38,757 nt of DNA from an uncultured Acidobacteriia bacterium (GTDB lineage: Bacteria; Acidobacteriota; Terriglobia; Bryobacterales; Bryobacteraceae): contig CAIVPR010000012.1 in NCBI GenBank assembly GCA_903907865.1, forward strand, positions 1 through 38,757, in the 5' to 3' direction. Under the pieces are notes generated by a model. The model saw nothing but the letters and a program-made list of their open reading frames with translations, was not told the DNA's origin and did not search any database. The position numbers and the translations under genes were made by a program. Below are positions 1,614 through 11,107 of this stretch, piece by piece (the stretch's first letter is position 1; each line of letters begins with the position of its first letter).

Positions 1614-2398
1614 TCCCAAGTAACGCAAACCGCCCACTTCGAAGCGCCTTACCCCCTCCCAGACCATGCGCCGCTCCGTCATCAGGAATACCGAACTGCC
1701 AGCGCAGCCTCGTTGCGCGCACCCTCGAAAAACACGCCCCGTGGGCTTTCATTCCCTTCCTTGCGGGCCGGCCCGATAGGGAACAATCTTGCGTGCCGCG
1801 TCGAGCATCCTCTCGACGCATGTGGGCGCCGAATCCAACTGCGGACCAGCGCGATCTGGAGTCACCCTTCGATTGGGCGAACACTCCCTTGCGGTCGTGG
1901 TTCGTGAACACGATGATTCATCCGAGCCGCGACCGCGAGGGAGCGTTTGTTCGCGGAGCAGAAAATGCGCCGCGCACGGCGCCGCCCTTCCTCGAATACT
2001 TCACCGTCAACATCCGCAACCGGAATACGCGGGCGGCGCAATTCCCGTCGCGGTCCGTCCGCCGGTCAACACCACGAGAGCGAACTCGAGACCTCAAATA
2101 GAGCGCTGACAATAATTTACACGACTAGAGGGTGGCTGGCATGGCACCCACGCCCGATTAGGTGCTGCTGCCTCGCAACAACCTGTCCGAATCGCCCCGA
2201 CTCCAGTGCCGGTTCGTCCCCGCGCGCAAAATCCTGAGGTTGTCATTGTGGTCGCCAAGCCGTTGGAAAAAAGGGCCGGTGGCCCGCATTTGACATAACG
2301 CCCAATGAACTAAGCCGCCTCGCGGCGGCCCGGTTGTTTGAAGCGTTTTGACGGCTGGTGGCGCGGGTCGGGTAGCTTGTGGTGGAAAAGGCTCCACC
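1614..2398. other. Gene-free stretch of ~785 bp
   Basis: No convincing coding region was found. It holds copy 1 of the hairpin repeat family (about 1884-1990) and a small perfect hairpin at 1798-1819 (8-bp stem gcgtcgag/ctcgacgc). Just before the integrase is an inverted repeat, tggtgga/tccacca (2380-2386/2393-2399), whose loop holds the AAAGG ribosome-binding site and whose right arm reaches the start codon. Confidence 0.6.
1884..1990. repeat. Dispersed hairpin repeat, copy 1
   Basis: The shared 38-bp core (gattcaNccgagccgcgaccgcgagggagcgtttgttc) is at 1915-1952, with one variant base relative to the other two copies. The upstream arm at 1884-1902 pairs with 1925-1943 (16 of 19 positions plus wobble pairs), so the unit folds into a long stem-loop. 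Weaker similarity to the other copies continues to about 1990. It is intergenic. Confidence 0.8.
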
Positions 2399-3361
2399 AT
2401 GACCCCACTACGCATCCGCATGACCGAGGAACTGCGCCAGCGCAACTACTCGGAAAACACCTCGCCCGCCTACCTGCGCCACGTCGCCGACTTCGCCAAG
2501 CACCATGGCAAGTGCCCCACCCTGCTGGGCCCCGACGACGCCCGGAAATACCTGCTGCACCTCGTCGAAGTCCGCAAGGCCTCCCGCGCCACCCAAGCGC
2601 AGGCGACGGCGGCGCTCCGCTTCCTCTGCTCCACGGTCCTCGACCGCGACTTCATTTCATGGAAGATCCCCTACCCCAAGGGCGAGAAGCGCCTTCCCAC
2701 GGTCCTCGGCCGGGACGAGGTCCGCCGCCTCCTCGACGCGGCCGCCTCACCCAAACACCGGGCAATCCTCGCCACCCTCTACGGCGCGGGGCTCCGGGTC
2801 TCGGAGGCCTGCAGACTCGCCATCCCCGACATCGACAGCGCCCGCATGGTCCTCTACGTCCGGGGCGGGAAGGGGCGCAAGGACCGCGAGGTGATGCTCT
2901 CCCCCGTCCTGCTCGCCACGCTGCGGGACTACTGGAGGCGGCGCAAGCCCACGCGCCTGCTGTTCTCTGGCCACAACCCGGAAAAGCCCATGACCACCAA
3001 GGCTGTCTTCGACGCCGTCCGCAAGGACGCCGCGCGCGCCGTGATCAACCGCCCGGGCTCCCCGCACACCCTCCGCCACAGCTTCGCCACCCACCTGCTG
3101 GAGGCGGGCACGGACCTACGGACGATCCAACTCCTCCTCGGTCACTCCCATATCGACACCACCGCCATCTACCTCCACGTCTCCCGGAACCACCTCCGGA
3201 ACACCGCCAGTCCGCTGGACTCGCTCGCCGCCCCGGACCCGGCCCGCCGTGACCGCGCGGCCCCCGTTCGAGATAGCCGACATCGTCCGCACACACCGGG
3301 GGCAGTACTTCGCGGACGACAGCCATGTCCTCCACCGCGACCAGATCTCTTTCACAGTTGA
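2399..3361 (+). CDS. Tyrosine recombinase/integrase of an IS91-type module
   Basis: A 320-residue site-specific recombinase. It has an N-terminal SAM-like core-binding domain (about residues 5-95) and a C-terminal catalytic domain. All catalytic residues are visible: R133 in GLRVSE, a lysine in GGKGRKDR (158-161), H223 and R226 in HTLRHSFATHL, H249 in LLGHS and the nucleophile Y258. I chose ATG 2399 because AAAGG lies 7 nt upstream. The tail after about residue 282 reads through the start of a transposase gene in another frame. Such integrases commonly precede IS91-family transposases. This copy looks intact, but its transposase partner is cut short. Confidence 0.9.
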   Translation: MTPLRIRMTEELRQRNYSENTSPAYLRHVADFAKHHGKCPTLLGPDDARKYLLHLVEVRKASRATQAQATAALRFLCSTVLDRDFISWKIPYPKGEKRLPTVLGRDEVRRLLDAAASPKHRAILATLYGAGLRVSEACRLAIPDIDSARMVLYVRGGKGRKDREVMLSPVLLATLRDYWRRRKPTRLLFSGHNPEKPMTTKAVFDAVRKDAARAVINRPGSPHTLRHSFATHLLEAGTDLRTIQLLLGHSHIDTTAIYLHVSRNHLRNTASPLDSLAAPDPARRDRAAPVRDSRHRPHTPGAVLRGRQPCPPPRPDLFHS

Positions 3362-3380
3362 AGATCCCCAACCGCCTTAA
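3249..3380 (+). pseudogene. IS91-family transposase, N-terminal remnant
   Basis: A 43-codon frame starting at GTG 3249 overlaps the integrase 3' end. It encodes a P-F-E-I-A-D-I-V-R-T-H-R start, the same opening as the IS91 transposase at 8048 (V-E-A-A-D-I-F-R). The family normally continues through a zinc finger and an HUH nuclease domain. Here similarity is lost by about residue 35 and the frame stops at 3378-3380. I take it as a transposase truncated when the following region joined. Confidence 0.6.
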
Positions 3381-3542: not shown

Positions 3543-4376
3543 TCAGCCCCGCAAAACCGCACCAGCCTCGGCAATCAAAAACTCGGTCAAGGGTAGCTGG
3601 CCCCCGCGGGTGAAGCCCGAAAGGGTTGCTTCGATCGGATGCGCCGCCGACCTTGCGTCTCGGTACATTGATTCGAGAACGCTGACGCTCAGCACTCCGT
3701 TCTCGCTTGCTTCTCGAAACCACATTACCGGTAAGGATGTGACCTGACCGGCGATGTCACTGATGAAATCGCTGAGGTCGTGCGACAAACCGCAATAGTT
3801 AATGTAGTTCTTGAAGAACACCACGCAACCGTCGTCCAGCTTTTCCAAGGATTCTGGTGGATAGAAAAGGATTGAACACTTTTTCCAAATGTCGGCTAGC
3901 GCAATGGGCTCTATTGACTCGCGAAGGGCTTGCTCCGACATCACACGGCAGTGCTGCTGAACGCCCCGCGCCACTGGCACCGGCCAATGGCAGTGAACGA
4001 AATCAACCAACCGGGCAAGCGCGAGCAGCGACCGTAGGTGCGCCTCTTTGAGAGGCTCGTGTTGGTCCACGCAGTTGTCGAAGGTCCTCCAAACGCAACA
4101 GCTAAGTAACTCGGCAACCAGCAGCTTTGAATACTGCTTTCGGCCGCTGAATCGGAGAAGTTCGTAGTACGGCACGACATACCGCAGCAGGTGCGTCGAT
4201 ACTTTGGCCGTGATTCCTTCCTCAGACCAGCAAGCCGGCAGGTTCGGGTCGTATGAGAGGATTTCACTAGCAACGTCTTCCAGTACTCTAGGCAGTGCGG
4301 GATCGAGCTCGATCATCTGTCCGTACAGATTCGAGTTGCTCTCGGACACTAGGAAGTCCATCTCATGCCTGCTCAT
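3543..4376 (-). CDS. Helical protein of the RiPP operon, possibly isoprenoid-synthase-like
   Basis: A 277-residue protein, fourth gene of the operon. I chose ATG 4376 because it overlaps the upstream TGA as ATGA, the sign of translational coupling; an upstream start at 4445 is less likely. The sequence is predicted to be nearly all helical, with no signal peptide. Two acidic clusters, D100-N-C-V-D104 and S-H-D200-L-S-D203-F-I-S-D207, sit where class I isoprenoid synthases carry their metal-binding motifs. The spacing is not canonical, so this is a weak resemblance. If true, it would act on a prenyl diphosphate or on the modified peptide. The gene is certain; the function is unknown. Confidence 0.8.
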   Translation of the reverse strand: MSRHEMDFLVSESNSNLYGQMIELDPALPRVLEDVASEILSYDPNLPACWSEEGITAKVSTHLLRYVVPYYELLRFSGRKQYSKLLVAELLSCCVWRTFDNCVDQHEPLKEAHLRSLLALARLVDFVHCHWPVPVARGVQQHCRVMSEQALRESIEPIALADIWKKCSILFYPPESLEKLDDGCVVFFKNYINYCGLSHDLSDFISDIAGQVTSLPVMWFREASENGVLSVSVLESMYRDARSAAHPIEATLSGFTRGGQLPLTEFLIAEAGAVLRG

Positions 4377-5629
4377 CGCGACTCGTTGTTTCTTTTCCAG
4401 CGGTCCCGGTGATCCGCTATGCATGAGTCCGCTACTGATCGCCAAACATCGTATTGCGGGAATCTAGTCACCATTCGGTTCGCCGAATCCAGAGCCTCAC
4501 TCATCTCGTCGACGTACGCGTTGCCGCATTCTGAGAGCTGACCAGACGCGCGCAGAGTGGCCAATGCGACTTCGGATTCTCTAAGCCTTCTCAACAACAT
4601 TGCACCAACCGCCTCACGCTCGTTATCTGAACTCACGGCGGTCCGAAGAGCATTGGAGTAATACGCCGATACACGAGCGAAGGAACTCAGCCCCCTCAAG
4701 ATACCGTCGAGAGGCCGTGGATCGTCACGCCATGGCGATAAGTATGTCGCCTGCTGATGAGTAGGCTTGGAGTTCCAAAAATCAACACCACCTTCGATTG
4801 CGTAAAAGAATTGATGATCTGCTTCATGCACTAAAGTCTCCCCTACAAGGAATGGTGTCAACTCATTGTTCTTGAAGACAACATTCGGTAGACTTCGTGC
4901 GCTAAAGCTCAGGTTCACCGTAACTTCCGTCTGCCTCAGTGGTACGATGTAAGACACGAAGCTGCTCACTAGGTCGCTCGCCGTGTCGTCGCTTTGAATC
5001 AGATCGACAGCGGCTGCAAGCGCAGGCGTCCATCGCTCCGGATCGATGTTAACGTCCCAGGCAATCGAGTATCCGTCCCCGCCAGATTCGGAAAAGCACT
5101 CGAAATACCGATCCACGATCTTGATTGATCGGGCCGATGAGAACCGAGACAGCGCGAACCTTCTGTCGCCGACGACGATGTCGCCACTGTCATGCCGATA
5201 TCGGCAGCGCACTTCTTCGTCGGATGCGAACAATGGGATGGCGGCGTGGAGTCCTGATACGGGAAGAAGAAGCGTCTGTGGCAACGGGGCCGCGAGGGCG
5301 AATTCAAAATCGCAACCGCCCAAGGCAGAGACTGAAAGCCGCATGAGATTGAGGACAGATGTCACTTCACCGAGCTCGGTCCGGCCACTCCCGGCGTAGG
5401 CTAGCTTCAGAGCCAAGCGTCTGAGGTCGTCTATCCAGTGGGAAAACACATGATCGCGACACAGCGAACTCCGAACGGCATCATCCAAGCACATCACGCA
5501 ATCCAGACAATCCTTGGCGACTGCTCCAGCGCGTTCATCGAAGCTGGAAACTAGCACGTGCACATCGGATATGACGTCCAGTCGCTCGCGCATCCACGCG
5601 GTCCGAGCCTGCTGAATTGCTGTAAACAT
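4373..5629 (-). CDS. HExxH-type peptide beta-hydroxylase-like protein
   Basis: A 418-residue protein with H268-E-A-D-H272 in the sequence ETLVHEADHQFFYAIEGG. This is the signature of the HExxH peptide-modification family, often found beside FxsB-type radical SAM enzymes and now named as alpha-ketoglutarate-dependent peptide beta-hydroxylases. The gene begins 17 nt after the radical SAM stop, with GGAG about 10 nt before its ATG, and ends in an ATGA overlap with the next gene. The expected role is oxidation of side chains in the 64-residue precursor. That is inferred from family and context; the target residue cannot be read from sequence. Confidence 0.85.
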   Translation of the reverse strand: MFTAIQQARTAWMRERLDVISDVHVLVSSFDERAGAVAKDCLDCVMCLDDAVRSSLCRDHVFSHWIDDLRRLALKLAYAGSGRTELGEVTSVLNLMRLSVSALGGCDFEFALAAPLPQTLLLPVSGLHAAIPLFASDEEVRCRYRHDSGDIVVGDRRFALSRFSSARSIKIVDRYFECFSESGGDGYSIAWDVNIDPERWTPALAAAVDLIQSDDTASDLVSSFVSYIVPLRQTEVTVNLSFSARSLPNVVFKNNELTPFLVGETLVHEADHQFFYAIEGGVDFWNSKPTHQQATYLSPWRDDPRPLDGILRGLSSFARVSAYYSNALRTAVSSDNEREAVGAMLLRRLRESEVALATLRASGQLSECGNAYVDEMSEALDSANRMVTRFPQYDVWRSVADSCIADHRDRWKRNNESR

Positions 5630-5646
5630 GACGTTTTTCTCCGCCC

Positions 5647-6819
5647 TCAGCTGTTCTTCTTAAAGACGTGCGAGCGCATCAGCCGAAAGAGATACTTCAA
5701 GTCCTCACAATACACCGATGGGTTGATGAATCCATTGAGCGGACTGTATCTATGAGGTAGGTAGCCGCCGCCGCAATGGCTCAAGTGTTCGCATTGACGG
5801 CATGTGTCGCACAGGGAATTGAATCCGGCCATCCGTGAGTAGATTGCCGGATGCAGAACCGCCTCATCAAAGGAATTATTAGCTACATTCAAGTTCAGTA
5901 GCGTGGCTTCACGCCCAACCATTTTCAGCGTGTCCACCGCCTCAATGTCGCCGTTAGTGTCAACGATAACGAAGTCAACGGACTGAGCGCCGATTTCCTC
6001 CGAAGTTGAAATACCCCCCAGCATCAGATTCAGTATTTCCTCAAAATACGGGACTTCTATATGCGAATAGCTTTCGAGCCACAACACAAAGAACTCATGA
6101 AGCCACTTTCCATACGCTTGCTGATCGCCGGCAACTCGAAAAGGCGGTCTATCGTGGTTCGAATCCGGTAACAGGAGGTTGGCGCCCATCACGCCTAATT
6201 CGTCCAGTGCGCGAAGAATCTCGACCGGCTTGTTGCGAAGGTCAACAACGATCAGGATTCCGCCGAGAATTTGCCGGTGCATGGGCGACGACTGTACGAG
6301 ACGGATCGCGCTGGTTACGTCCTCGTACGAGCTTCGTCCGTCGTGATAAACGCGAAATCGGTCGTTGTTGGCTCGAACGCCGTCCAAGCTAATGCCAATG
6401 CGAATCTGGTGTTCGGAAAGAAAATCAATCAGTTCCTGGTCGAGCAGGGTACCGTTCGTTTGCATGCCAAATTTGACTGTGCAGGCGATGGTCGACGAGA
6501 ATATCGTCACATAATGCCTCAGTCTATCGATACCGGCCAACAATGGCTCGCCGCCGTGAAACACAACGCTGACCTCGTTCAGACTGTGCGCGGCGACATG
6601 TTCTTGTATTCGTAGGGCAAGTTGCTGAGCGACTGCAATCTCAAGGAAGTGTGGTTTCGATCTCCAGGATTGATCCGGGCCCTGATAGACATAACAGTAA
6701 CCGCAGTCCAGATTGCAGCGCGACGCCACCTTGACGATGAATGTATAGATCGGCCTCCGGAACTCTAGCGAGGCGTCGTGATCGTAGTTCTCCGGCGTCC
6801 ATCGCAGACTGGTGCGCAT
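5647..6819 (-). CDS. FxsB-like cyclophane-forming radical SAM/SPASM peptide maturase
   Basis: A 390-residue radical SAM enzyme. The [4Fe-4S]-SAM motif is C35-x3-C39-x2-C42 (CNLDCGYCYVY), preceded by the FxsB-like I-V-K-V-A-S-R. The C-terminal SPASM-type cluster has cysteines at about 337, 340, 343, 349 and 361 in the pattern CDTCRQCEHLSHCGGG...NPSVYC. D-Q-S-W after the first motif and Y-F-E-E-I-L-N-L-M-L-G-G also fit FxsB. Such enzymes join an aromatic ring to the beta-carbon of the residue two positions later. I chose ATG 6819; an in-frame TTG at 6867, with AGGAG upstream, is the alternative. It follows the precursor gene and is 17 nt from the hydroxylase gene. Confidence 0.92.
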   Translation of the reverse strand: MRTSLRWTPENYDHDASLEFRRPIYTFIVKVASRCNLDCGYCYVYQGPDQSWRSKPHFLEIAVAQQLALRIQEHVAAHSLNEVSVVFHGGEPLLAGIDRLRHYVTIFSSTIACTVKFGMQTNGTLLDQELIDFLSEHQIRIGISLDGVRANNDRFRVYHDGRSSYEDVTSAIRLVQSSPMHRQILGGILIVVDLRNKPVEILRALDELGVMGANLLLPDSNHDRPPFRVAGDQQAYGKWLHEFFVLWLESYSHIEVPYFEEILNLMLGGISTSEEIGAQSVDFVIVDTNGDIEAVDTLKMVGREATLLNLNVANNSFDEAVLHPAIYSRMAGFNSLCDTCRQCEHLSHCGGGYLPHRYSPLNGFINPSVYCEDLKYLFRLMRSHVFKKNS

Positions 6820-6929
6820 AATGACTTGACCTTCGGAGAAGATTGAAAATTCGGAGCCTAGGTGCAACAGGATCGATACTCCTGCATTCCGCAGGCAACC
6901 GCTGCAATCAGGAGCCTCCTACAGCTGCA

Positions 6930-7124
6930 CTACCAAGTGCTCGAATGCTTCTGGGTGTAACTCGAATGCTTGGTGTAGTGGCTCGTATGGTCCGCCTGAT
7001 CCGCACCTGCCTGGAGCCTCCGAAGCGCTCTCAGCACTGCCGGGTTTTGAGCCAAGGCATCATTCACATGAAGCTCGCCGCCACTCGAGGGCGACATAGC
7101 AACTGGCGTACAAGTGTCTTCCAT
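6930..7124 (-). CDS. RiPP precursor peptide with tandem His-x-Ser units (HxSxx-COOH)
   Basis: A 64-residue peptide. The leader (1-45) includes N-P-A-V-L-R-A-L-R-R-L, similar in style to FxsA leaders. The core is three tandem units: HTSHYTK (46-52), HSSYTQK (53-59) and HSSTW (60-64). Each starts His-x-Ser, with His at 46, 53 and 60, exactly seven apart, and each holds an aromatic residue three or four positions later. The C-terminal five residues are H-S-S-T-W, i.e. FxSxx-COOH with His for Phe. An AGGTGAG Shine-Dalgarno stands 5 nt before ATG 7124, and a promoter lies 48-77 nt upstream. It is the first gene of the operon. Precursor role is inferred from motif, position and promoter. Confidence 0.82.
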   Translation of the reverse strand: MEDTCTPVAMSPSSGGELHVNDALAQNPAVLRALRRLQAGADQADHTSHYTKHSSYTQKHSSTW

Positions 7125-7171
7125 TTCTCACCTACCTAGCAAACAACGTTCCCATAGAATCGGAATGCCCT

Positions 7172-7201
7172 AGTGTACCATCTCCACGAGACGCGTGTCA
7201 A
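7172..7201 (-). promoter_or_regulatory. Promoter of the RiPP operon
   Basis: On the minus strand a perfect -35 TTGACA (7196-7201) is followed by an 18-nt spacer and a -10 TACACT (7172-7177). Transcription would start near 7165, about 40 nt before the precursor ATG at 7124. Confidence 0.65.
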
Positions 7202-7292: not shown

Positions 7293-8039
7293 CGGGGTCG
7301 CGCCCGGATCAGGTCCGCAGGTGGCAGCTGCACCTCCTCAACGTCCGGCACGCCAGCGCGTCCTCCTACATCCAAGCCGTGTGCGCCCTCCGCTTTTTCT
7401 ACACCAACACGCTCCACAAGCAGGTAGAAATCGACCGCATCCCCATGCCGGGGCACGAGCACAAGCTCCCCCGTGATCCTGAGCCGGGACGAAGTAGAGG
7501 CGCTGCTCGAAGCGCCCAGGAACCTGGGACACCGCGCCATGCTGGCCACCATGCACGCCGCCTTGCTCCGCATATCCGAAGTCGCCGCGCTCAAGGTCCG
7601 CGACCTCGACGGCGACCGCCGCACCATCTCCGTGCGCGAGGGCAATGGCCGCAAGGACCGCCAGGTCATGCTACCCGACCCGCTCCGCGAACTGCTCGCT
7701 GCCTATTGGAAGTGGAAGCACCCTACTGAGTGGCTGTTCCCCGGCAATGTCCCCGGCCAACCAGTCTCCAGCCGGACCACCTTCCGGGCCTGCCGCAGCG
7801 CCGCGCGGAAGGCGGGCCTCGCCAAGCACGTCGACCCGCACTCGGTCCAGCACGCCTTCGCCACCCATCTGCTGGAGGACGGAGTCAACCTGGCCATCAT
7901 CCAAGTACTGCTCTGGCACAAGAGCCTGAAAACAATCGCCCAATACCTCCACGCGGCCGACGCCGCGGTGCTCTCGACCCGGAGTCCGCTGGAATCGCTC
8001 GGCGCGATAGACCTCGTCCGCACGACACCACCCAAGTAG
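7293..8039 (+). pseudogene. Decayed tyrosine recombinase of a second IS91-type module
   Basis: The N-terminal part (from about 7293, D-Q-V-R-R-W-Q-L-H-L-L-N-V-R) and the C-terminal part (7473-8039) are in different frames. The shift falls in a run of five C at about 7469-7472. The left end lacks a start codon, so the gene is also truncated. Catalytic residues are partly lost: the second arginine in H-S-L-R-H is replaced by Q (H-S-V-Q-H), and G is replaced by W in LLWHK, while the first R, the Lys motif GNGRKDR and the Y are kept. It resembles the recombinase at 2399 only moderately, so the two are not recent copies. Confidence 0.82.
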
Positions 8040-8047
8040 GCTGAACG

Positions 8048-9276
8048 GTGAACGGGCGCACCGTGGAAGCCGCAGACATCTTCCGCAAGGGCGAAACGGA
8101 CTTCCTCGCGCAAATGGGGACACACCCTCGACCCGCAGCAAAGAAGAGCCTTCGAGGCCATCCGCGACTGCCGCACGGCCGCGCTCGGAGGCCACAAGGA
8201 CAAGTGCGACGGGTGCGGGTACCGGACTCCGTCCTACAACTCGTGCCGGAACAGACATTGTCCAAAGTGCCAATCACTTTCACGGGCGAGGTGGCTGGAG
8301 GACAGGGCCGCGGAACTGCTGCCTGTGCCGTATTTCCACGTCGTTTTCACGCTTCCGGCCAAGATCGGAGCACTCGCGCTCCAGAACGGGCGCACGGTCT
8401 ACCGCATCCTGTTCCGCGCGGCGTCGGAAACGCTGCTCACCATCGCGGCCGACCAGAAACACCTCGGCGCGTCCGTCGGATTCCTAGCCGTGCTGCCAAC
8501 TGCGAGCGCAGAAGTAGTGCCGTACTTATCCCCGGATGCGCCCGGCATCGGTTTATGCTCCTGGTCAATGGGGCCAGACACTGCAGCTACACCCGCACCT
8601 GCACTGCGTCGTCCCCGGAGGCGGAATCGGACCGGACGGAACGTGGGTGTCCTGCCGGGATTCGTTCTTCCTCCCGGTCCGGGTTCTGGGCCGCGTGTTC
8701 CGGGGCAAGTTCCTGTCATACCTCGGAAAGGCCTTCCGCAAGGGCAAGCTGCAGTTCCACGGCGAAATGGCGGGACTGGCGAAACCGGCGGCGTTCGACG
8801 AACTCCGCCGCGGCGGCGCAAGGACCGAATGGGTTGTATACGCCAAACCGCCGTTCGGCGGGCCGGAACAGGTGCTGAAGTACCTGGCCCGCTACACGCA
8901 CCGGGTGGCCATCTCCAACCGGCGGCTGCTCTCCATGGAGGACGGCAGGACCACGTTCGAATGGAAGGACTACGCCGGGGGCAACAAGACACTGACCATG
9001 ACGCTCGAGACAACGGAGTTCATCCGGCGGTTCCTGCTGCACATCGCGCCAGTCGGGTTCATGCGCGTCCGGCAGTTCGGATTCCTTGCCAACAGGGTGC
9101 GGCGGGAGAGACTGGCGCAATGCCGGAAACTGGTCGGTGCCGTCGCGCCGTCGCGTCTTGAAGGGGAATCGAAAAAGGAACGCGGACTATGCCCGGTCTG
9201 CCGCACCGGCCACATGGTCATCGTCGAGCGGCTGGCACCGGCAGCGCCCCCGCCCGCATACAAGGACTCCCCATGA
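8048..9276 (+). pseudogene. IS91-family transposase, frameshifted and interrupted
   Basis: The pieces together give a full IS91 rolling-circle transposase: an N-terminal E-A-A-D-I-F-R start, a four-Cys zinc finger (C-D-G-C...C-R-N-R-H-C-P-K-C), the HUH motif H-P-H-L-H-C-V-V-P-G-G and the catalytic-Tyr region Y-L-A-R-Y-T-H-R-V-A-I-S-N-R. The frame changes near 8112, consistent with loss of two bases, and again at about 8496-8565, where ~70 bp foreign to the family lies between F-L-A-V-L and the Q-W-G-Q-T-L-Q-L-H-P-H segment. The gene starts 8 nt after the recombinase stop, as in complete modules. It should be inactive. Confidence 0.88.
8496..8565. other. ~70-bp insertion inside the IS91 transposase
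   Basis: Similarity to IS91 transposases stops after F-L-A-V-L (codon ending 8495) and resumes at C-A-A-T-G-G (8566) in a different frame. The intervening segment has no recognised content. The ends are judged by where the family sequence breaks. Confidence 0.5.
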
Positions 9277-9782
9277 AGGAACCCCGACCGGATTCCGCCG
9301 ACCCGTGCAAGCCTTCGTTGAGGCGGAAGGAGATCCCGGCCCACCCGGTGGCCAACGCTCAAAGACCCCTCCGAAACGACGGCCAAACCGATCAAACCCG
9401 CACGGGACCGCCTCCCCCAACCCGATCCTCACGTTGGAAACCGTTCCGCCGGCCGCCCGCCAAGCGCACTCCGTGAACCTGAAAACGATTCAATACCCAT
9501 AGAGCACGGTCCGGCTCAGTTCAATGCATTCTATCCGCAACGCTTCCGGGTCGATTCCATCCCGTCCCCCGGCATCGTGGCCGGAAGCATCGCGGATAGA
9601 ATCCTCTTCATTACCCGCCGAAAGCGGGCGGGGAAGGGCCCCGACGGGGCCGGGTCGCCGGACATAAAGGACGTTATGTTGTATCGCGGGAGCTGTGATA
9701 CCGTCATGTTCGAATGCCGGATTCCTTTTCACAACGCCACGGCCTCGCTGGCCCTCCGTCGGGAACTCTCTTCCGGGATGAG
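9277..9782. other. Gene-free stretch after the IS91 remnant
   Basis: No coding region can be supported. It contains repeat B copy 1 (9496-9640). The part before the repeat is probably the terminal noncoding part of the transposon, but no end sequence was recognised. Confidence 0.5.
9496..9640. repeat. ~145-bp palindromic repeat B, copy 1
   Basis: Closely similar, in the same orientation, to 10528-10674. It contains an inverted repeat of 22 nt: attctatccgcaacgcttccgg (9528-9549) against 9581-9602, matching at 20 of 22 positions. The two copies flank the AbiJ-like gene. Confidence 0.85.
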
Positions 9783-10505
9783 ATGCCGGTGAGCTTCCGC
9801 AGGTTTCTGATTGATCTCCCCCATGCTCACGCTGGCGTCAAGATTCACGAAGTGCACAAAGTGACCTGCGACGTCCTGCAGAAGTGGCCGGACGAACGGT
9901 CGCCCTACTACGACTACAAACCGAACATCCAAAACTGCGAGTGGTTTCACATTTGCGATATCATTGAAGGCCTTTTTACTGTCCTTTACCGCAACCACTC
10001 GTTTCCATATGCGTTCGTCGAAGCGATAAACGATGCCTTTGTCGCACAGAACATTGGCTGGCAACTGAACAACTACGGAAAGGTCGTGACGCGAGGAAAT
10101 GAAGCGTTCGAGGCCACCCTAAAGACTTCCGTCGCAGTATTGGAAACTAACAGCAAGCCAACAGCAGCGGCACACATCATGTCTGCGCTCAGAGCGCTTT
10201 CAACACGGCCAACAGCCGATACAAGCGGCGCGGTGGCACACGCAACCAATGCAGTCGAGTGCGTCTTGGGCCAGATAACCGGTCAAGCCATGACGCTCGG
10301 CAAATATCTAGACAAGCATTCCCGTCTATTTCATCCGGCGCTCAAGAAGGGTCTCGATGGGATCTACGGCTACGCGTCAGATGAAGGAGCCCGTCACGGA
10401 AAAGAGGGCACGCAGCCAACTAGGGAGGACGCAGAATTCGTATTGGCCGTCTGTGCCGCTACCTGCACGCTCCTAATCAGAAAGGAGGAACAGGCTGGGA
10501 AGTGA
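9783..10505 (+). CDS. AbiJ-NTD4/HEPN-like putative abortive-infection protein
   Basis: A 240-residue protein from ATG 9783; the frame is open upstream but that part overlaps sequence near the repeat. The N-terminal half (W-F-H-I-C-D-I-I-E-x-L...F-V-E-A-I-N-D-A-F...I-G-W-Q-L-N-N-Y-G-K-V-V-x-R-G) resembles AbiJ N-terminal domain 4. The C-terminal half (H-A-x-N-A-V-E-C-V-L...L-Y/I-Y-G-Y-A-S-D-E-G-A-R-H-G) resembles the helical HEPN-like C-terminus of such proteins, with R-H as candidate RNase residues. Proteins of this type are linked to phage defence by RNA cleavage. Base composition is visibly more AT-rich than nearby core genes, and direct repeats flank the gene. Family call is moderate. Confidence 0.72.
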   Translation: MPVSFRRFLIDLPHAHAGVKIHEVHKVTCDVLQKWPDERSPYYDYKPNIQNCEWFHICDIIEGLFTVLYRNHSFPYAFVEAINDAFVAQNIGWQLNNYGKVVTRGNEAFEATLKTSVAVLETNSKPTAAAHIMSALRALSTRPTADTSGAVAHATNAVECVLGQITGQAMTLGKYLDKHSRLFHPALKKGLDGIYGYASDEGARHGKEGTQPTREDAEFVLAVCAATCTLLIRKEEQAGK

Positions 10506-10527
10506 ACCGGATTTGCGTCCGATAAAA

Positions 10528-10674
10528 CCCATTGAACACGGTCCGGCTCGTTCAATGCATTCTATCCGCAACGCTTCCGGGTCGGTTCCCTCCCGCCTCC
10601 ACGGCATCGGGGCCGGAAGCATCGCGGATAGAATCCTCTTCACTACCAGCCGAAAGCGCCGAGCAGGGAAGGGC
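10528..10674. repeat. ~145-bp palindromic repeat B, copy 2
   Basis: Direct copy of 9496-9640 with scattered differences. The internal inverted repeat has arms 10559-10580 and 10613-10634. A short outer palindrome, cattgaac/gttcaatg, is intact here but degraded in copy 1. The copy ends in gggaagggctttt. Confidence 0.85.
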
Positions 10675-10786
10675 TTTTCTGGCGAGCTGGTTCCGTGCCT
10701 TATTGGCTGGGTTTGTAGGCAGCTCGCGCCGCTGCCCTCGGCTGGGTCGCTAATGGCTGTCGGACCTGCCGGGATGGTCGCCCCTT

Positions 10787-11107
10787 CTATTTCAGACTTG
10801 CGCCGCATGAGCCACATTGGACCAAGGACCGACGCCTAGACAATACAACGCCTGGCCACGCTAGACAAATGACAAAAGCTGCCGTTACACCAAGCCACGG
10901 CAAGGACAACTCGAGGGCAAGTTTCAGAGGTAAACCGCCGCTTAAAGCTCCCTCAGCCATCCAGAAGCAAAAGGAGCCACCAACTGCTGCCACTGCAATG
11001 AGAAGGAACCCCGCGATGCGAGCGATGAAAGAACGGCCCCGCTCGCTCCGAACGAGAGCTTGAGATCCACAAGAGCTGCAAGAGGCTACGGTACGGGCGC
11101 TGCTCAT
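10787..11107 (-). CDS. Small two-pass membrane protein with flanking CxxC motifs
   Basis: A 106-residue protein. An N-terminal C-S-S-C (residues 10-13) and a C-terminal C-G-S-C (about 98-101) bracket two hydrophobic helices at about 27-50 and 64-90. The cysteine pairs could together form a cytoplasmic zinc ribbon while the helices span the membrane. No named family was recognised, and there is no clear ribosome-binding site before ATG 11107. The balanced topology and paired cysteines argue that it is real. Confidence 0.65.
   Translation of the reverse strand: MSSARTVASCSSCGSQALVRSERGRSFIARIAGFLLIAVAAVGGSFCFWMAEGALSGGLPLKLALELSLPWLGVTAAFVICLAWPGVVLSRRRSLVQCGSCGASLK

What the first reader, a model, noticed from the sequence alone, without database searches (positions are those of the whole stretch)
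3543..7201. A RiPP-like operon pairing an FxsB-type radical SAM enzyme with an HExxH hydroxylase and a fourth, unknown helical protein
Seen: a promoter (TTGACA-N18-TACACT), a 64-aa peptide gene, a radical SAM/SPASM gene with FxsB-like motifs, an HExxH gene 17 nt on, then a helical protein joined by ATGA. Known: FxsB-type enzymes form aromatic-to-beta-carbon cyclophanes, and HExxH proteins are peptide beta-hydroxylases often found beside them. Inferred: one pathway makes a cyclised, hydroxylated peptide. The familiar FxsC/FxsT partners are absent and a new component is present, in what looks like an acidobacterium.
Basis: partly seen in the sequence, partly recalled or inferred. Interest (0 to 1): 0.9.

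Follow-up and report, generated by a model that had tools for sequence, protein, structure and literature searches.

The report
Split cyclophane-and-hydroxylation peptide operon, orphan gene
A short stretch of bacterial DNA encodes a small peptide, two enzymes of a known kind that probably cross-link and oxidise it, and a fourth protein without recognisable relatives whose role is unknown.

Summary
The four-gene minus-strand operon is real: peptide 7124-6930, radical SAM/SPASM enzyme 6819-5647, HExxH protein 5629-4373, fourth gene 4376-3543 (ATGA overlap). It is a lower-GC block between two related tyrosine recombinases, so probably acquired. The radical SAM enzyme passes the FxsB-family cut-off, the HExxH protein that of the aKG-HExxH peptide beta-hydroxylases; its model matches solved SjiH and ChlB-HExxH. 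Nearest characterised kin are ChlB/YhhB, single proteins carrying both domains that cross-link Tyr/His motifs and hydroxylate. Here the domains are separate genes, as in at least 13 of 79 related loci, so the enzyme pair is not new. The peptide has a YhhA-like leader stretch and a tandem core YTKHSS-YTQKHSS-TW; a Rhodococcus relative has YDKHTS beside the same pair. Unmatched in my searches are the core, whose likely rings have Ser/Thr in the middle, and the fourth protein: no convincing homologue in 1,436 (overlapping) genome or record look-ups, plasmids, phages, viral contigs, PDB, Pfam, NCBIfam or PADLOC. Its function is undecided. New variant of a known kind.

The parts
7172..7201 (-). Promoter-like site TTGACA-18-TACACT, TG before the second hexamer
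   Evidence: 10 of 12 matches; consensus only
6930..7124 (-). Precursor peptide, 64 aa: leader with NPAVLRALRRL, core HTS-H-YTKHSS-YTQKHSS-TW
   Evidence: similarity to YhhA leaders and the Rhodococcus DMU1 precursor; no NCBIfam match
5647..6819 (-). FxsB-family radical SAM/SPASM enzyme, predicted cyclophane-forming (ATG start 6819; alternative TTG starts 6867, 6909)
   Evidence: TIGR04269 393.4 bits over cut-off 370; ChlB radical SAM domain 9gm3 E 9.9e-71; conserved CxxxCxxC and C-terminal cysteines
4373..5629 (-). aKG-HExxH peptide hydroxylase (H268 E269 x x H272; PWRDDPRP)
3543..4376 (-). Orphan fourth gene, 277 aa, no transmembrane stretch, start overlapping the HExxH stop (ATGA)
   Evidence: no convincing homologue

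Best explanation
A probably acquired RiPP (triceptide-type) operon, a split-gene relative of the fused YhhB/ChlB enzymes. The FxsB-family radical SAM enzyme recognises the leader of the 64-aa peptide (around NPAVLRALRRL, inferred) and makes three-residue cyclophanes in the tandem core, most likely Tyr50-Thr-Lys52, His53-Ser-Ser55, Tyr56-Thr-Gln58 and His60-Ser-Ser62 (aromatic carbon of residue i to beta-carbon of residue i+2; 2 Da lost per ring). The separate aKG-HExxH enzyme then oxidises residues in or next to the rings. The fourth protein, made by coupled translation with the HExxH enzyme, is an accessory or tailoring partner or an immunity protein; which is undecided. Shown: gene order, families, modelled HExxH fold, leader/core resemblance. 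Inferred: all chemistry, ring positions, order of steps, and the fourth protein's involvement.
Against: No relative of the whole operon was found; the radical SAM enzyme is at most 44% identical to any locus fetched. It fails the YhhB equivalog cut-off (374 against 445). In the same shuffle test four HExxH-bearing loci gave weak or no resemblance (L033 42, L047 136, L133 160, L136 235 of 1000). The core's predicted middle residues are Thr/Ser, not the Asp/His reported for the fused enzyme, so the HExxH step may differ. No protease or transporter in the operon. The fourth gene has no conserved association. Nothing was tested at the bench.
Confidence: 0.72

Rival explanations
1. The fourth gene is an unrelated passenger that only shares the transcript; the functional system is the three-gene peptide/radical SAM/HExxH set.
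For: No homologue beside the 80 related genome loci (tblastn, E up to 1); in all loci held only weak short hits at E 0.002-0.09, one of them (56 residues, E 0.012) at the YhhB locus L049 but out of frame with the annotated gene there. The flanks hold recombinases and a candidate defence gene, a usual place for unrelated cargo.
Against: ATGA overlap with the HExxH stop, same strand, same low-GC block.
Confidence: 0.25
2. The HExxH enzyme does not simply beta-hydroxylate but oxidises Ser/Thr to aldehyde/ketone or cleaves the backbone, giving a carbonyl-bearing or shortened product.
For: Middle residues of the predicted rings are Thr51, Ser54, Thr57, Ser61, which already carry a beta-hydroxyl; PosC, of the same enzyme family, oxidised an engineered Ser by -2 Da and cleaves its substrate at an ARMD motif (PMC12636437, passages).
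Against: No ARMD motif in the peptide; His, Lys and Gln beta-carbons are available for ordinary hydroxylation.
Confidence: 0.25
3. It is a His-Xaa-Ser (Hxs) system, because the core contains three H-x-S triads.
For: HTS at 46, HSS at 53 and 60 (408 of 20,000 shuffles of the 21-residue tail have at least as many).
Against: The radical SAM enzyme scores 70.7 bits against an HxsB cut-off of 370; the peptide matches no NCBIfam model; the operon has one radical SAM gene.
Confidence: 0.03
4. A decayed, non-functional cargo operon stranded between mobile elements.
For: Flanked by recombinase genes, with a Y2 transposase gene on the right; the fourth protein is absent from the 149 other genomes of the order sample apart from chance-level hits.
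Against: All four frames are open and the catalytic motifs of both enzymes are kept.
Confidence: 0.07

Closest known systems
YhhA/YhhB triceptide systems (Rhizobium, Novosphingobium plasmids; NF041707)
   Same: FxsB-like radical SAM plus HExxH; leader NPAxxR...; core begins with Tyr-x-basic followed by His motifs
   Different: YhhB is one fused protein (711-716 aa in the three loci), with GNAT and glycosyltransferase genes downstream; here the domains are separate genes, the core is a tandem YT(Q)KHSS, the fourth gene is unrelated, and the YhhB cut-off is not reached
ChlB / ChlB-HExxH (PDB 9gm3, 8s5f)
   Same: Best solved relative of the radical SAM enzyme; second-best fold match of the HExxH enzyme
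   Different: Fused; the fused enzyme is reported to hydroxylate Asp and His; its precursor was not seen here
SjiH (PDB 22ob, same sequence as 22nu)
   Different: 17% identity; its substrate was not found in the papers held
Rhodococcus sp. DMU1 plasmid cluster (locus L046)
   Same: Same order peptide, radical SAM, HExxH as separate genes; core YDKHTS against YTKHSS
   Different: Single core unit, no fourth gene; 36% identity of the radical SAM enzymes
FxsA/FxsB systems (TIGR04269)
   Same: Radical SAM enzyme passes the FxsB subfamily cut-off
   Different: Peptide lacks an F-x-S motif (motif recalled)
PflC/PosC and BpmH HExxH enzymes (PMC12636437)
   Same: Same HExxH enzyme family (IPR026337 in the paper)
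   Different: PflC/PosC act with an MNIO enzyme, on Gln runs and an ARMD motif

Membership tests
FxsB family (TIGR04269) | Score over curated cut-off 370 bits | tested here: met
   393.4 bits
FxsA/FxsB system | Precursor ending in an F-x-S motif (recalled) | tested here: not met
   Peptide ends KHSSTW and contains no Phe
YhhB equivalog (NF041707) | Score over cut-off 445 bits | tested here: not met
   374 bits
YhhB / ChlB enzymes | Radical SAM and HExxH domains fused in one protein | tested here: not met
   Separate genes 17 nt apart; fused in L049-L051
YhhA precursors | YhhA-like leader and Tyr/His core | tested here: inconclusive
   Leader similar (1, 2 and 12 of 1000 shuffles as good for three YhhA, 42 for a fourth YhhA-like peptide); core differs; no NCBIfam match
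aKG-HExxH peptide beta-hydroxylase (TIGR04267) | Score over cut-off 40 bits and HExxH motif | tested here: met
   78 bits; H, E, H kept in 19 of 19 aligned sequences
aKG-HExxH peptide beta-hydroxylase (TIGR04267) | Fold of ChlB-HExxH / SjiH | tested here: met
Three-residue cyclophane-forming enzyme (triceptide) | C-C link between residue i and i+2 in the product | not testable with these tools
   needs expression and mass spectrometry or NMR
His-Xaa-Ser system (HxsB, TIGR03978) | Radical SAM score over cut-off 370 bits | tested here: not met
   70.7 bits
Class I isoprenoid synthase fold (fourth protein; a recalled likeness) | Match to PF00348, PF00494 or PF19086 | tested here: inconclusive
   Its locus is not among the matches at E up to 10, nor do these families appear; a distant fold relation is not excluded

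The most novel reading that the evidence does not exclude
The tandem core (YTKHSS-YTQKHSS-TW) becomes a chain of up to four neighbouring cyclophanes alternating on Tyr and His, whose ring-internal Ser/Thr are further oxidised by the HExxH enzyme to carbonyls, and a fourth protein of unknown fold then uses or guards them: a new tailoring step in triceptide biosynthesis.
Probability: 0.12. Interest if true: 0.75.

Novelty: new variant of a known kind. Interest (0 to 1): 0.42.

Why it matters
It offers the radical SAM/HExxH pair as two separate, co-encoded genes with a compact, repetitive substrate, convenient for testing the order and site-selectivity of ring formation and oxidation. The core pairs Tyr and His ring motifs with Ser/Thr in between, so it asks whether HExxH enzymes do more than hydroxylate the residues reported so far (Asp, His, Gln in the passages read). 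The fourth protein, unmatched in my searches, may be a new RiPP component.

Tried and rejected
Fourth protein, families: Pfam at E up to 10 gave only Arf 0.24 and FAM209 0.27 (Arf 0.21 for the longer 300-aa reading); NCBIfam none; PADLOC none; PDB sequences best E 1; plasmids none at E up to 1; phages none at E up to 1; viral contigs none (exact-pattern based, finds close relatives only). Whole genomes: 1 of 396 of the phylum, the window itself (300-aa reading, E up to 0.001); order sample 22 of 150 at E up to 1, of which one is the window and the best other has E 0.005 with three stops inside; 2 of 11 genomes or records behind related loci at E up to 0.1, best 0.018 with a stop inside; 0 of 194, 3 of 299 at E 0.001-0.009, 0 of 246, 0 of 140 in four other phyla at E up to 0.01. 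Of the three the best, L212, lies in a protein that looks membrane-bound and the others contain stops. These add to 1,436 look-ups, overlapping; they are samples of their groups, and searches had no positive control.

My impression by eye that the fourth protein resembles class I isoprenoid synthases was recalled; Pfam models did not hit it, and hhalign to ORFs from six isoprenoid-synthase loci gave probabilities of 0.1-0.7%. That last test is weak: only L215 and L218 look correctly read; the ORFs taken from L216, L217, L219 and L220 look wrong. Single-sequence AlphaFold of the fourth protein was poor (pLDDT 42), its fold search meaningless (best E 1.3).

The radical SAM enzyme also matches the PADLOC viperin models (49 and 35 bits, over residues about 30-178); I take this as the shared radical SAM core, since the FxsB score is far higher. 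A structured attenuator between peptide and radical SAM gene: the 121-nt stretch folds no better than shuffles (z 0.08). The first genome-contig scan with the radical SAM protein alone found nothing; the second, with a conserved C-terminal block, kept the best 80 of 185 relatives, so counts from it are biased. HExxH fused 23, adjacent 13, not found near 43, of 79: L143 was dropped as a copy of L043, and the rule was a profile hit within 400 nt; L197 has an HExxH frame beside the enzyme but was counted as 'none', and diverged domains would be missed. L034, L052 and L129 were also left out of the 93-row tree; in it the window is a long branch and its place is not firm. My gene caller missed or misframed genes (for example the window's own HExxH gene), so neighbour lists from it are rough. 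Host phylum not determined.
Full report
Observation. On the minus strand lie a 64-aa peptide (7124-6930), a radical SAM/SPASM gene (5647-6819 from its likely ATG; TTG starts at 6867 and 6909 are possible), an HExxH gene (5629-4373) and a 277-aa gene (4376-3543) whose ATG overlaps the preceding TGA as ATGA. In 1-kb windows GC is 52-57% over the operon and 64-67% in the nearest windows outside it; a second low stretch (56-57%) lies at 9501-11000, so low GC is not unique to the operon. Codon-position GC of the fourth gene resembles that of the radical SAM gene; the HExxH gene is flatter. All four frames are open.

What such pairs do. From passages of PMC11002830: YhhB links Tyr C3 to Arg C-beta and His C2 to Arg C-beta, HaaB links His C2 to Ala C-beta; triceptide links run from residue i to i+2. 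[quoted passage not shown] radical SAM-fused enzymes form the largest cluster of the family; PosC oxidised an engineered Ser by -2 Da and cleaves the backbone. The two primary papers on ChlB are not held.

Is the split arrangement new? No. A scan of genome contigs kept the best 80 of 185 relatives. In 79 of them the HExxH domain was fused in 23, in a separate gene within 400 nt in 13, and not found near in 43 (L143 dropped as a copy of L043; L197, counted among the 43, does have an HExxH frame beside it; diverged domains would be missed). YhhB on three plasmids is fused. The window enzyme is at most 44% identical to any row of the tree, sits on a long branch, and its place near the Yhh group is unsure.

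The peptide. Its leader holds NPAVLRALRRL where YhhA of L049 has NPAIQRLRSRV. Of 1000 shuffles of the window peptide, the numbers scoring as high were 1, 2 and 12 for three YhhA peptides, 42 for a fourth YhhA-like one (L033), 0 for the Rhodococcus DMU1 precursor, 1 for an Acidobacteria MAG precursor (L134), and 56, 136, 160, 235 and 421 for L044, L047, L133, L136 and L043. The Rhodococcus peptide contains YDKHTS where the window has YTKHSS, and is followed by separate radical SAM and HExxH genes. The window core repeats the unit as YTKHSS-YTQKHSS-TW; H-x-S occurs three times (408 of 20,000 shuffles of the tail reach that; a repeated 4-mer arises in 309 of 20,000). By analogy with YhhB the likely rings are Y50-K52, H53-S55, Y56-Q58 and H60-S62; this is inference. 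It has a consequence: the ring-middle residues are Thr, Ser, Thr, Ser, which already carry a beta-hydroxyl, so the HExxH enzyme would act elsewhere (His, Lys, Gln) or do a further oxidation.

The fourth protein. No convincing homologue was found (searches and counts under Tried and rejected). It has no transmembrane stretch (largest 19-residue hydropathy 1.18). At the three YhhA/YhhB plasmid loci the annotated downstream genes are others: GNAT and glycosyltransferase genes at all three and a further hypothetical protein at two (gene tables incomplete). Its role is open: accessory or tailoring partner, immunity protein, or passenger. Coupled translation favours a partner of the HExxH enzyme, weakly.

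Setting. The block lies between two tyrosine recombinases (Pfam Phage_integrase) that share 45% identity over 177 codons (tblastx); the right-hand one is followed by a Y2 transposase, where plasmid matches are annotated as IS91 family transposase. A candidate defence gene lies at 9714-10505 (AbiJ_NTD4; PDC-S32). No exporter or protease is among the operon's four genes; the rest of the window was not screened for them.

Verdict. What remains unmatched is the repetitive Tyr/His core with Ser/Thr in the ring-middle positions and an orphan coupled gene: a new variant of a known kind, of moderate interest.

Noticed in passing
2348-3361, 7473-8039 and 8536-9276, + strand: Two related tyrosine recombinases flank the operon; a Y2 transposase follows the right one. 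A short ORF at 3249-3380 looks by eye like a truncated start of such a transposase, but had no Pfam match.
   Followed up: partly
9714-10505, + strand: Candidate anti-phage defence gene (AbiJ_NTD4 in Pfam; PDC-S32 in PADLOC) close to the RiPP operon; it too lies in a low-GC stretch.
   Followed up: partly
34-315 and 334-633, - strand: HTH_3 protein, by eye of HigA-antitoxin type, beside a small ORF that by eye resembles a HigB-type toxin; only the HTH domain was tested.
   Followed up: no
L046 5640-5837 (Rhodococcus sp. DMU1 plasmid): Likely RiPP precursor annotated as hypothetical protein, core YDKHTSNH, ahead of radical SAM and HExxH genes; no other plasmid record matched it.
   Followed up: partly
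L133 3605-3823 and L134 5616-5804: His/Ser-rich likely precursors (HGSHSS..GHSS; GQHSSHTDHN) near FxsB-like and HExxH genes in a Bacteroidetes MAG and an Acidobacteria MAG; L133 also has a 215-aa gene ahead of the HExxH gene.
   Followed up: partly
L033 7571-8158 and L142 7783-8844: Extra genes beside Yhh-like systems that by eye resemble 2OG-Fe(II) oxygenases; in L033 the gene lies between the radical SAM and HExxH genes.
   Followed up: no
L034 10050-10364: Possible precursor ending PHTSHSDNDGWV downstream of a distant radical SAM/HExxH pair.
   Followed up: no
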